Shown here: piece by piece, positions 52,318 to 55,460 of the stretch
Position numbering within the stretch: the first letter of the stretch is position 1
How the letters are laid out: each line of letters opens with the position of its first letter
DNA from: an uncultured Alphaproteobacteria bacterium
GTDB taxonomy: Bacteria; Pseudomonadota; Alphaproteobacteria; Caulobacterales; Hyphomonadaceae
DNA: 64,000 bases
Assembly: GCA_903831255.1 (NCBI GenBank)
Contig: CAIKWZ010000040.1
Coordinates: forward strand, 62,001-126,000
Direction: 5' to 3'
Position numbers and translations under genes: made by a program
The notes under the pieces: generated by a model
Told to the model about the DNA's origin: nothing
Seen by the model: the letters and a program-made list of their open reading frames with translations, nothing else
Database searches by the model: none

Positions 52318-52494
52318 CAGCCCTCTGTAGGCATTGAGCCTTCGATGGATGTGCTTAGGGATCTGTTCGAGCTGTTTGCGAAAGGTTAGCTTAGTTTCAT
52401 TAGGCTGAGAAAACTGTCGGCCTGACGCAGATCAGGGGCGCATTTCCGTTAACAGGCAGCGATCACAAGCTGAGCCAGAGGCGGGCGAGGTCAC

Positions 52495-53601
52495 GTGTTC
52501 CGTATTGCGATGACATCGGCCCGGTTGCGGAATGGTCTGCTGCTCGTCGCCGCCGGTCTTGGTCTGGCGGGCGCCCTCGCCGGGATCTGGTTATCCCGCC
52601 CTGTGCTCATTGACCCACCGGCCCTCTCGGGTCCCTGGACGGGCGATTATGGATCAGGATCCGCCTGGGCGCTGCGTCCCTCCACGCCGCCCCCGGGAGG
52701 CTGGCTCACGCCCTGGGGGGTGGACGTGTTCTTCATTCATCCGGCTACGACGAGCCGCGATGGCGAAAGCCTGAAGCCGGGCGACATAGCGTCGGACCAG
52801 CGCCTTTTTAACGCGATTTTACCCTCGCACGCCGGGCCCTTCGTGTCCGCGGGCCCGATTTACGCGCCAAGATACCGGCAGTTCCACCGAGGAAGCGACG
52901 CCCTGGCGAAGGATCTCGCCTACCTCGATATTGTCCACGCCTTCGACGCCTATATGGAGACGGACAATCAGGCTCGGGGCGTGATGCTGGTCGGGGTTGG
53001 CGAAGGTGCGGATCTGGCGTTCCGACTGCTGGAGGACCGTTTTCGAAGCGAGCCGCTCGCCTCAAGACTTGCCGCAGCCTATCTTATCGGCGGACGAATA
53101 TCGCAGGCGGAAGTCGATACCCGGCTTCGACAACCGACATGCGAGCGTGAGACGGAAACCGGTTGCCTGATCGTCTGGTCTGAAGACCCGCCTTCTGAGG
53201 CCGGAGGCGGGGACGGGATCTGCATCAATCCGATATCGTGGCGCCGGGATGAAGCTCCCACCTTGAAATCCGACCATCGCGGCGGCGCCCGCGCGCAGGG
53301 CGCTCGACGTCCTGTCATCCATCCTGCAGAGGTCTCGGCGACTTGCCGCGAGGGGCGGCTGCTCATCACCCGAGCGTCCTCGCCCGACCTGCAGACCGAC
53401 GTCAGAGCCAGAGACCTGACACCTGCCTACAACCTGTTTTATGCGGATATGGCCCATAACGCCGGACTACGAAGTGCGGCGGCCTCCGTCTGGATGGAAG
53501 CCAATCTGAGAAAGCCCGCTCCACCTCTTCCAGCGCCCGAGGCGCTGGAAGATGCGCCAATTCATCGGGCGGACGGACGTGTTCACCCCGTCACGCCATA
53601 G
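52495..53601 (+). CDS. DUF3089 family protein lacking the expected nucleophile
   Basis: Seen: 368 residues from a GTG at 52495; one N-terminal membrane segment (about residues 13-33), then an exported alpha/beta-hydrolase-like domain. DUF3089 landmarks are present: VDVFFIHPATTS (residues 77-87), GPIYAPRYRQFHRG near 121-133, and LDIVHAFDAYM. In relatives the next element is a GHSQG nucleophile elbow; here the same place reads GVGEG (residues 167-171), so the Ser is Gly169. A family His near the C-terminus also seems absent before YNLFYADM. It is probably a non-catalytic relative. It stands alone, 177 bp after recG. Confidence 0.75.
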   Translation: MFRIAMTSARLRNGLLLVAAGLGLAGALAGIWLSRPVLIDPPALSGPWTGDYGSGSAWALRPSTPPPGGWLTPWGVDVFFIHPATTSRDGESLKPGDIASDQRLFNAILPSHAGPFVSAGPIYAPRYRQFHRGSDALAKDLAYLDIVHAFDAYMETDNQARGVMLVGVGEGADLAFRLLEDRFRSEPLASRLAAAYLIGGRISQAEVDTRLRQPTCERETETGCLIVWSEDPPSEAGGGDGICINPISWRRDEAPTLKSDHRGGARAQGARRPVIHPAEVSATCREGRLLITRASSPDLQTDVRARDLTPAYNLFYADMAHNAGLRSAAASVWMEANLRKPAPPLPAPEALEDAPIHRADGRVHPVTP

Positions 53602-53615
53602 ACCGGAGACAGGCC

Positions 53616-54086
53616 TCAGAGATCGGCCGCCACACGCATGGAGACAATCTTTCCAGGCTTCTGCGGGGGCTCGCCCCTCGGAAGAGCGTCAATGAGCTCC
53701 ATCCCGTCCGTCACCTGTCCCCAGACAGTATATTGCCGGTCCAGGAAGGACGCGTCGTCAAAGACGATAAAGAACTGGCTGTCCGCGCTGTCAGGGTTCT
53801 GCGCCCGAGCCATCGAGCAGACGCCCCGCTGATGGCTGACATCGTTGAACTCCTGCCGGAGCTTTTTTCCCGAGCCTCCCATGCCGCTCCCCTGAGGGCA
53901 TCCGCCCTGGGCCATGAAGCCGCTGATCACCCGATGAAAGCTCAGGCCGTCATAAAACCCGCTGCGCGCGAGCTCCTTGATCCGAGCCACATGGCCAGGC
54001 GCCTTCTCAGGCAGGAGCTGGATGGTCACTGGCCCGGCTTCGAGCGTCAGGATCAGGGTGTTTTCTTTATCAGATACGTCACTCAC
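53616..54086 (-). CDS. ppiB: Peptidyl-prolyl cis-trans isomerase, cyclophilin type (cytoplasmic)
   Basis: Accelerates proline isomerisation during folding. Seen: 156 residues from a GTG at 54086; LSFHRVISGFMAQGG, the active-site FHRVI/QGG pair; CSMARAQNPDSADSQFFI; and YTVWGQVTDGMELID. No signal peptide, so cytoplasmic. The open frame extends to 54329 inside the neighbouring cyclophilin gene, but the family begins at ENTLILTLEAG and the GTG overlaps the upstream stop by eight bases. It is the second of two adjacent cyclophilins. Confidence 0.92.
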   Translation of the reverse strand: MSDVSDKENTLILTLEAGPVTIQLLPEKAPGHVARIKELARSGFYDGLSFHRVISGFMAQGGCPQGSGMGGSGKKLRQEFNDVSHQRGVCSMARAQNPDSADSQFFIVFDDASFLDRQYTVWGQVTDGMELIDALPRGEPPQKPGKIVSMRVAADL

Positions 54087-54954
54087 TTGGGGGCATCTCC
54101 ACAATCGCCGGAACCGGCGGAAGGCTGCAGGCGTCCGCGACGCCCGCAGCGTTCGCTTCAGCGATGATCTTTGCGAACTCCGGTCCGTCGGTCCGCTGGA
54201 CGTAGACGGTGGGCCGCTTGTAGTCCGGCAGATCGGCGACGACCGTCGCCCTGGAAAGTTTGTCGGCGACCCCGGGCGACATACGTCCGTCGGTCTCTTC
54301 AGGGCCGGCCTTGATCCCTCGGATGACATCCAAGCCTGTCAGAGCTCGTCCCCATACCGTGTAGGACTTATCGAGAACAGGGCTTGTCTGACGCATAAGG
54401 AAGAATTGCGTATCCGCGCTGTTAGGCTCATCCGTCCGCGCCATCGACGACACGCCAGGGCAATGAAGCGCCCAGGTGCTGACGGCTTTATCCGCCATCA
54501 TTTCCGACAGCGAATCCGGCTGCGATCCGACGATGAAGCCCTGATAGTAACCCGTCTCGGAGCTCGCAGGATCGCCGAGCCACTGAACCTGCGCCTCAGC
54601 CGGCTTCCTCTTGAAGGTGAATTCAGCCTTCATCTCAGGATAAGGCGTCGAGAGCATATAGATCGCCGAGACTTCACCGCCCTGAGCCATGAAGTCGTCG
54701 ATCACCCGATGGAAGGGCAGACTGTTGTAATGACCAGCCCGGGCGATCGTCTTGATCTGGGCGACATGAGTCGGCGCGAAGTCGGGCCTGAGCTCGATCA
54801 GCACCTCCTGGCGCTTTATGGTGAGCTGCAGGAGGTTTTCCGGATCAACCTTGCGCCAATTCGCCGGATCATCCGCGGGACCCGCGAGCGCAGCGCCGGT
54901 CAGCGCAGCAGAAACGCCAGCCCCGATCAGGGATCGAAGAACGAGGGAAGTCAT
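54079..54954 (-). CDS. Peptidyl-prolyl cis-trans isomerase, cyclophilin type (exported)
   Basis: Seen: 291 residues; a signal peptide (TSLVLRSLIGAGVSAALTGAALA), then a cyclophilin domain with LPFHRVIDDFMAQGG, SSMARTDEPNSADTQFFLM and YTVWGRALTGLDVIRG. About 45 residues are inserted between the two active-site halves, and a 60-residue tail follows the domain. It should act in the periplasm. The ATG at 54954 overlaps the coaD stop; a TTG precedes it, but GGAG lies seven bases before the ATG. It is co-directional with ppiB and coaD. Confidence 0.9.
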   Translation of the reverse strand: MTSLVLRSLIGAGVSAALTGAALAGPADDPANWRKVDPENLLQLTIKRQEVLIELRPDFAPTHVAQIKTIARAGHYNSLPFHRVIDDFMAQGGEVSAIYMLSTPYPEMKAEFTFKRKPAEAQVQWLGDPASSETGYYQGFIVGSQPDSLSEMMADKAVSTWALHCPGVSSMARTDEPNSADTQFFLMRQTSPVLDKSYTVWGRALTGLDVIRGIKAGPEETDGRMSPGVADKLSRATVVADLPDYKRPTVYVQRTDGPEFAKIIAEANAAGVADACSLPPVPAIVEMPPSE

Positions 54955-55460
54955 CAACGGGCTCCTTTCGTCCGCTCAAAACGCTCCTTCAGACGCTTAT
55001 AAACGTCTGGAGGCACAAAGAGGTCTGCGCTGCCGTCGAGCCGGGCGATTTCCTTGACGAGGCGCGAGGAGACGGCCTGATGCATCGGGTCGGCCATCAG
55101 GAAAACGGTCTCGATGTCATGATTCATTTTCTGATTCATGGCGACCATCTGAAACTCATATTCAAAATCCGAGACGGCCCTCAGTCCCCGAATGATCACC
55201 TGCGCCTCGCAGGCCTCTGCAAACTTGATGAGCAGGTTCTCGAAGGGCCTCGCCTCGATCTCCGCATGGCCGGAAAACCTGGCGGTCTCGCGCATCACCA
55301 TATCCACCCGCTCCTCCAGGGAGAAAAGAGGACCTTTGTCGCGATTGATCGCCACGCCGATGATCAGCTTGTCGACCAGCTTGACCGCCCTCCCGATGAT
55401 GTCGAGGTGGCCGTTGGTGATGGGATCGAACGTTCCCGGATATAGACCAACTCGCTTCAC
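54954..55460 (-). CDS. coaD: Phosphopantetheine adenylyltransferase
   Basis: Fourth step of CoA synthesis: adenylates 4'-phosphopantetheine. Seen: KRVGLYPGTFDPITNGHLDII at the N-terminus (TFDPxTxGH nucleotide motif), VAINRDKGPLFSLEER, VIIRGLRAVSDFEYEFQM and VSSRLVKEIARL; 168 residues from a GTG at 55460, preceded by GGAGG. The frame stays open upstream to 55589, which would add 43 unrelated residues. It is downstream of gyrA by about 55 bases. Confidence 0.96.
   Translation of the reverse strand: MKRVGLYPGTFDPITNGHLDIIGRAVKLVDKLIIGVAINRDKGPLFSLEERVDMVMRETARFSGHAEIEARPFENLLIKFAEACEAQVIIRGLRAVSDFEYEFQMVAMNQKMNHDIETVFLMADPMHQAVSSRLVKEIARLDGSADLFVPPDVYKRLKERFERTKGAR

What the first reader, a model, noticed from the sequence alone, without database searches (positions are those of the whole stretch)
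52495..53601. DUF3089 protein with Gly in place of the nucleophile Ser
Seen: the conserved FFIHPATT and YAPRYRQ segments are kept, but the GHSQG-type elbow reads GVGEG at residues 167-171 and the expected His near YNLF appears missing. The gene is intact with a membrane anchor, so it is not simply decaying. A dead hydrolase retained as a binding or signalling protein is the inference.
Basis: partly seen in the sequence, partly recalled or inferred. Interest (0 to 1): 0.5.

Follow-up and report, generated by a model that had tools for sequence, protein, structure and literature searches.

The report
Dead esterase kept across bacterial order
This gene makes a membrane-anchored relative of an esterase that lacks two residues such enzymes need for cutting, and nearly all of the counterparts sampled in the same bacterial order lack them too, so an old enzyme seems to have been kept for another, still unknown job.

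Summary
ORF 52495-53601 (+) is a DUF3089 protein (PF11288, 136.9 bits) with GVGEG at 167-171; the catalytic His is gone too (Leu308). It is no sequencing error. Sampled counterparts from five families of the order form one supported 73-row clade: 72 of 73 lack the Ser, and none of 72 readable rows has the His, which is usually Lys/Arg (61 of 72). Of 27 rows from outside the order, 24 keep Ser and 26 His. recG lies within about 3.2 kb in 41 of 57 wide clade loci; a DUF502 gene lay between in five of seven gaps read. The frame is under purifying selection (dN/dS 0.16), but here dN is 8-13 times that of neighbouring genes, DUF502 was not found in this genome, and 8 of 15 genomes of the genus gave no counterpart. 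In other members of the family, shorter remnants near DUF502 keep a membrane anchor and C-terminal tail but no Ser at the elbow. Best reading: an old, membrane-anchored, probably periplasmic pseudoenzyme with a binding or scaffold role, under weakened constraint here. Loss of serine-hydrolase residues is well supported; the role is inference. No activity was measured.

The parts
52495..53601 (+). DUF3089 pseudo-hydrolase CDS, 368 aa, GTG start
   Evidence: ORF; PF11288 136.9 bits
52528..52593 (+). N-terminal membrane anchor (about residues 12-33), net positive charge on its N side
   Evidence: best 19-residue mean hydropathy 2.2, net charge +3 before and 0 after; helix 2-33 in the model
52729..52752 (+). 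kept FFIHPATT segment (residues 79-86)
   Evidence: alignment
52861..52881 (+). kept YAPRYRQ segment (residues 123-129)
   Evidence: P125, Y127 and R128 in 73 of 73 clade rows and 35 of 35 other rows
52993..53007 (+). former nucleophile elbow, GVGEG (167-171); Ser position is Gly169
53140..53166 (+). cysteine loop C216...C224, likely a disulfide
   Evidence: both Cys in 73 of 73 clade rows and each in 34 of 35 other rows; the disulfide is inferred
53416..53418 (+). position of the lost catalytic His, Leu308 here; Lys or Arg in 61 of 72 readable clade rows
53506..53598 (+). C-terminal tail, residues 338-368 (LRKPAPPLPAPEALEDAPIHRADG...), a tail type not found in 32 rows outside the clade
   Evidence: 94% identical to the sister against 72% for the rest
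52318..52494 (.). 177-bp gap after recG, where several relatives hold a DUF502 gene; no DUF502 match in this genome
50233..52317 (+). recG, upstream neighbour (name from position and family resemblance, recall; not scanned against Pfam)
53616..54957 (-). two cyclophilin-type peptidyl-prolyl isomerase genes, downstream neighbours
   Evidence: PF00160 for both; synteny

Best explanation
The gene encodes an alpha/beta-hydrolase-fold pseudoenzyme. At or before the root of the order, a DUF3089 esterase lost both the nucleophile Ser and the catalytic His and kept the fold, the N-terminal membrane anchor and the paired cysteines. The domain probably faces the periplasm and most likely works as a non-catalytic binding or scaffold protein, through the vacated pocket, the clade's C-terminal tail, or both. 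In this lineage constraint is weaker than in relatives: the neighbouring DUF502 gene is gone and the protein evolves fast, so it may be on the way to loss. Shown here: the residue losses and their extent among the rows sampled, the intact frame, selection, synteny. Inferred: lack of activity, location, the binding role.
For: 72 of 73 clade rows lack Ser and 0 of 72 readable rows have His, against Ser in 31 and His in 33 of the 35 other rows. The clade is one starred branch (SH-aLRT 96, quick method) in a tree built without the catalytic columns. In a DUF3089 esterase, MGS0012, alanine mutants of Ser193, Asp360 and His375 had greatly reduced activity (PMC5341072, passages seen). In the columns the query occupies no Ser, Thr or His is 90% conserved in the clade. 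Models show strand-turn-helix at the elbow and resemble alpha/beta hydrolases, best Z 11.0 and 10.4. dN/dS 0.157. A hydrophobic 19-residue stretch before the domain in 73 of 73 rows, with more positive charge on its N side in 63.
Against: No partner, ligand or phenotype is known. Fast evolution here and absence from 8 of 15 genomes of the genus also fit slow decay. Foldseek gave no PDB match at E 0.001 or better for either model. Each model used 8 sequences, and in the query model the loop holding residue 308 has pLDDT under 50. The acid of the triad could not be placed. Asp145, Arg128 and four Cys are conserved inside and outside the clade, so some side chains of unknown role remain.
Confidence: 0.7

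Rival explanations
1. Late-stage decay: the gene has no function left in this lineage and survives by chance, as its absence from sister genomes suggests.
For: dN is 7.8-12.8 times that of four neighbours. DUF502, next to the gene in several relatives, is not found in this genome or its sister. 8 of 15 genomes of the genus gave no counterpart. The query also lost the Gln of the elbow and the Lys/Arg at the His position.
Against: dN/dS 0.157 over dS about 1.1 with an intact frame in query and sister; the last 31 residues are 94% identical to the sister against 72% elsewhere, at similar synonymous divergence.
Confidence: 0.17
2. A changed enzyme: catalysis goes on by another mechanism, for example with the basic residue that replaced His and the acidic or Asn residue at the Ser position found in many relatives.
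For: Lys or Arg stands at the His position in 61 of 72 readable rows, and Glu, Asp or Asn at the Ser position in 38 of 73. Gln170 (71 of 73), Gly171, Arg128 and Asp145 (73 of 73 each) are kept; the query has Glu170.
Against: The Ser position varies among seven residues, and this query has Gly169 with Leu308, neither able to act as nucleophile or base. I can name no alpha/beta-hydrolase mechanism that uses such a pair (recall).
Confidence: 0.1
3. Sequencing or assembly error at the elbow codon.
For: None found.
Against: The sister genome and the clade agree; the His is lost too.
Confidence: 0.01

Closest known systems
Family XV lipolytic enzymes / DUF3089 esterases (Est10, PMC4431682; MGS0012, PMC5341072; passages seen)
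   Same: Same Pfam family; Est10 has GHSQG, a predicted signal peptide and measured esterase activity
   Different: Here Ser is Gly and His is Leu; extra C-terminal tail; an N-terminal anchor where Est10 has a predicted signal peptide
Inactive alpha/beta-hydrolase families named in PMC11878206 (DUF687, DUF3530, Arb2 domain; passages seen)
   Same: Same superfamily with catalytic residues lost and a non-enzymatic role proposed
   Different: Other families; that paper's DUF3089 passage reports no loss of the triad and proposes acyltransferases
Gibberellin receptor GID1 (among structure matches)
   Same: alpha/beta-hydrolase fold; a receptor rather than an enzyme (recall)
   Different: No sequence kinship shown; the match is one of many to this fold and says nothing about function

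Membership tests
Pfam DUF3089 (PF11288) | Profile score above the curated cut-off | tested here: met
   136.9 bits against 23.4
alpha/beta-hydrolase fold | Fold with strand-turn-helix elbow | tested here: met
   Predicted models only: best Z 11.0 (rmsd 3.7, 178 aligned) and 10.4 (rmsd 3.8, 174 aligned); the 50 entries shown are by title esterases, lipases, cutinases and the like. Foldseek alone gave nothing at E 0.001 or better
Family XV DUF3089 esterase | Nucleophile Ser in a GxSxG elbow | tested here: not met
   GVGEG
Family XV DUF3089 esterase | Catalytic His | tested here: not met
   Leu308 at the aligned position
Family XV DUF3089 esterase | Catalytic Asp | tested here: inconclusive
   The acid about 15 residues before the His could not be aligned with certainty
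Family XV DUF3089 esterase | Measured ester hydrolysis | not testable with these tools
   Needs purified protein
Order-wide dead DUF3089 clade | Falls inside one supported clade without Ser and His | tested here: met
   73-row clade, SH-aLRT 96; counts
Order-wide dead DUF3089 clade | Position near recG | tested here: met
   recG ends 177 bp upstream; recG within about 3.2 kb in 41 of 57 wide clade loci

The most novel reading that the evidence does not exclude
An esterase became a periplasmic, membrane-anchored receptor or scaffold at the root of the order, gaining a C-terminal tail as a docking motif. In parts of Hyphomonadaceae it has since shed the enzyme core down to anchor, cysteine loop and tail, so living genomes show successive stages of an enzyme turning into a docking protein, functionally tied to its neighbour DUF502.
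Probability: 0.22. Interest if true: 0.7.

Novelty: new variant of a known kind. Interest (0 to 1): 0.48.

Why it matters
Characterised DUF3089 proteins are esterases (PMC4431682, PMC5341072); an order-wide branch that has lost Ser and His shows that the label cannot be carried over to a large set of relatives. If the remnant forms are true descendants, the locus offers a graded series from enzyme to non-enzyme at a conserved genomic place, which makes the question of what a pseudoenzyme is kept for testable by deletion in cultured genera.

Tried and rejected
A functional tie between the C-terminal tail and DUF502 looked strong by raw count: by the pattern alone, of 72 clade rows, 34 with both, 28 with neither, 7 tail only, 3 DUF502 only; after hand-setting two rows, 33, 27, 8 and 4. 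It rests on 2-3 independent pairs on starred branches (3-7 on all branches) and cannot reach significance, so I do not claim it. The query and its sister also keep the tail without DUF502. One clade row cut by a contig end (L039) was left out of both counts.

The tail is not the best-conserved part everywhere. Of the 12 pairs it was clearly more conserved in two (query pair 94% against 72%, Hirschia-type pair L048/L038 86% against 58%), similar or higher in two and lower in six. I dropped the last two pairs of that call (L060/L148, L140/L149), because the script split those proteins at the wrong place.

Another nucleophile was sought: in the columns the query occupies no Ser, Thr or His reaches 90% identity in the clade; the four conserved Cys are about as conserved in the 35 other rows, most of which keep Ser and His. 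A solved relative by sequence: none at E up to 1. NCBIfam gave nothing for the query. My first neighbour table read one cyclophilin gene in the wrong frame; it was redone. In one search several DUF3089 frames run from stop to stop and so include upstream codons (for example 500 codons in L052/L053), which can raise their dN; the query pair is not affected. dS values over 1 are near saturation and rough. My first wording that the elbow is gone from all remnants was wrong and is mended.

Papers: the term DUF3089 is in 6 papers, PF11288 in 1, DUF502 in 4; pseudoenzyme with hydrolase fold and bacterial listed 3 papers, none on this by title; Hyphomonas with pseudoenzyme, and catalytically inactive with hydrolase fold and Caulobacter, listed none. 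I saw passages of PMC4431682, PMC11878206 and PMC5341072 and only listings of the rest.

Full report
What was reported and what is there. The ORF at 52495-53601 (+) is intact and gives 368 residues with the motifs as described. It scores 136.9 bits for PF11288 DUF3089 against a cut-off of 23.4 and nothing in NCBIfam. The elbow is GVGEG at 167-171 with Gly169 at the Ser position; the residue aligned to the catalytic His is Leu308. The search found two more DUF3089 copies in the genome, far off in sequence, and both keep GHSQG and the His.

What the lost residues should do. In MGS0012, a DUF3089 esterase, alanine replacement of Ser193, Asp360 and His375 greatly reduced activity (PMC5341072, passages seen). 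Est10, another member, carries GHSQG and is an esterase (PMC4431682, passages seen). The spacing between the two positions in 32 rows outside the clade is 144-182 residues (three of these rows lack the Ser and one the His), which fits the 182 of MGS0012. The acid could not be placed in my alignment.

How widespread the loss is. Relatives were gathered from the genus, family and order, from the class and from named contigs, with regions. Of 108 distinct sequences aligned, 107 went into a tree without the catalytic columns; one short row (L029) was left out. Seventy-three rows, all from the order and from its five family codes f1-f5, form a starred clade (SH-aLRT 96, quick method, no bootstrap). 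In it the Ser position is G in 32, E in 24, N in 11, D in 3, and Q, R and S in one each; the His position is K in 33, R in 28, other in 11, unread in 1, and never H. Gln170 is kept in 71 of 73 and Gly171 in 73; the two with Glu170 are the query and its sister. The 35 other rows are 27 from elsewhere in the class, five Ser- and His-bearing rows from the order (L015, L016, L121-L123), the two other copies of the query's genome, and L029. Ser is missing in four of the 35 (L088 GDEQG, L063 GSGQG, L065 GHGQG, L029 GHDQG); the His is Arg in L063 and unread in L029. The three Ser-bearing rows L121-L123 showed no recG in their 17-kb loci, so they look like other paralogues. The one clade row with Ser, L046 (GVSQG), has no His. 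The counts describe rows sampled, not all genomes: 164 of 249 genomes of the order gave a match at E 1e-30 or better, Ser-bearing forms included, and I read the motifs only in the rows listed.

Genomic place. The gene follows recG after 177 bp. In 57 wide clade loci recG was found within about 3.2 kb in 41; of the 16 without, several end at a contig edge. Of seven gaps between the two genes read for ORFs, five hold a DUF502 gene (L042, L049, L060, L038, L137), confirmed by Pfam in the four tested and by position for L137. In the other two (L056, L157), from a family whose genomes mostly gave no DUF502 match, the gap held other genes. DUF502 was not found in the query genome or its sister but was found in the other 13 of 15 genomes of the genus. 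In the same 15, seven have the dead DUF3089 (one cut by a contig end) and eight gave no counterpart, two of the eight being under 80% complete. In the five of those eight whose DUF502 region I fetched (L174-L178) no DUF3089-like frame lay in the 5.2-5.5 kb; in the two mapped more closely (L174, L176) a cyclophilin gene lies next to DUF502. So within one genus the two genes are separately dispensable.

Selection. Query and sister differ with dN 0.179, dS 1.14, ratio 0.157. Four neighbouring genes have dN 0.014-0.023, so the DUF3089 gene runs 7.8-12.8 times faster; in three other pairs of the genus (four genomes, so not independent) with the same neighbours the factor is 1.6-4.2. Against recG, measured in 15 other pairs of the clade, it is 1.3-3.2; recG was not measured for the query pair in that call because the sister's contig holds only part of it. 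The frame is constrained, but less so here than elsewhere. The query pair also lacks a segment of about 20 residues near 231 that its nearest relatives have. Synonymous sites are near saturation, so the ratios are rough.

Anchor, cysteines and tail. All 73 clade rows have a hydrophobic stretch before the domain, with more positive charge on its N side in 63, which suggests that the domain lies outside the inner membrane. Cys216, Cys224 and Cys243 are in 73 of 73 rows and Cys284 in 72. Many clade members carry a C-terminal tail (here KPAPPLPAPEALEDAPIHRADG) that my pattern did not find in any of 32 rows outside the clade (27 class-level and five Ser-bearing rows of the order). Its link with DUF502 is confounded by kinship.

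Remnants. Of 20 further regions, most chosen beside DUF502, 13 hold a DUF3089-like frame. Twelve of these, all of family code f1, have open frames of 245-353 residues and lie within about 1.5 kb of DUF502. None has a Ser at the third elbow position: nine have no G-x-x-x-G left there, while three (L165-L167) keep it as GADDG, GSDDG and GSGDG. All twelve keep a hydrophobic N-terminal stretch and a recognisable tail, and eleven a C-x(6-10)-C pair. Seven of the eight tested score below the Pfam cut-off. Their descent from the dead clade is likely by place and by weak similarity, but not proved; they are not in the tree, and I did not check recG beside them. The thirteenth (L170, family f5) is full length with GYGDG.

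Structure. The query model (8 sequences, pLDDT 72.4, pTM 0.75) and that of a typical relative, L036 (pLDDT 80.5, pTM 0.79), both show strand, turn and helix at the elbow and match alpha/beta hydrolases with best Z 11.0 and 10.4. No Foldseek match reached E 0.001.

Names. Some contigs of family code f1 are titled Hyphomonadaceae or Hirschia; the other family codes are unnamed. That the order is GTDB Caulobacterales is recall; NCBI places Hirschia in Hyphomonadales.

Verdict. Loss of Ser-His chemistry is well supported by sequence; the role as binding or scaffold protein is inference.

Noticed in passing
L160-L169, L173, L179 (and L184, L187): Short DUF3089 remnants, the first twelve within about 1.5 kb of DUF502, with anchor and tail kept and no Ser at the elbow; seven of eight tested score below the Pfam cut-off.
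   Followed up: partly
window 52318-52494: The DUF502 gene found at this place in several relatives is missing; not found in this genome and its sister only, of 15 in the genus.
   Followed up: yes
L063, L065, L088: Class-level DUF3089 proteins outside the order that also lack Ser: GSGQG with Arg for His, GHGQG and GDEQG with His kept; possible separate or earlier losses.
   Followed up: partly
L029:3-875 (-): A different DUF3089 paralogue at a contig end in the genus with Asp in the elbow, GHDQG; the His region is cut off.
   Followed up: no
L046: The only clade row with Ser (GVSQG), without the His; either a reversion or a chance Ser.
   Followed up: no
L161:1522-2538, L168:1328-2347: An open frame resembling a phosphotransferase (by eye, not searched) lies between DUF502 and the DUF3089 remnant in some members of family f1.
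   Followed up: no
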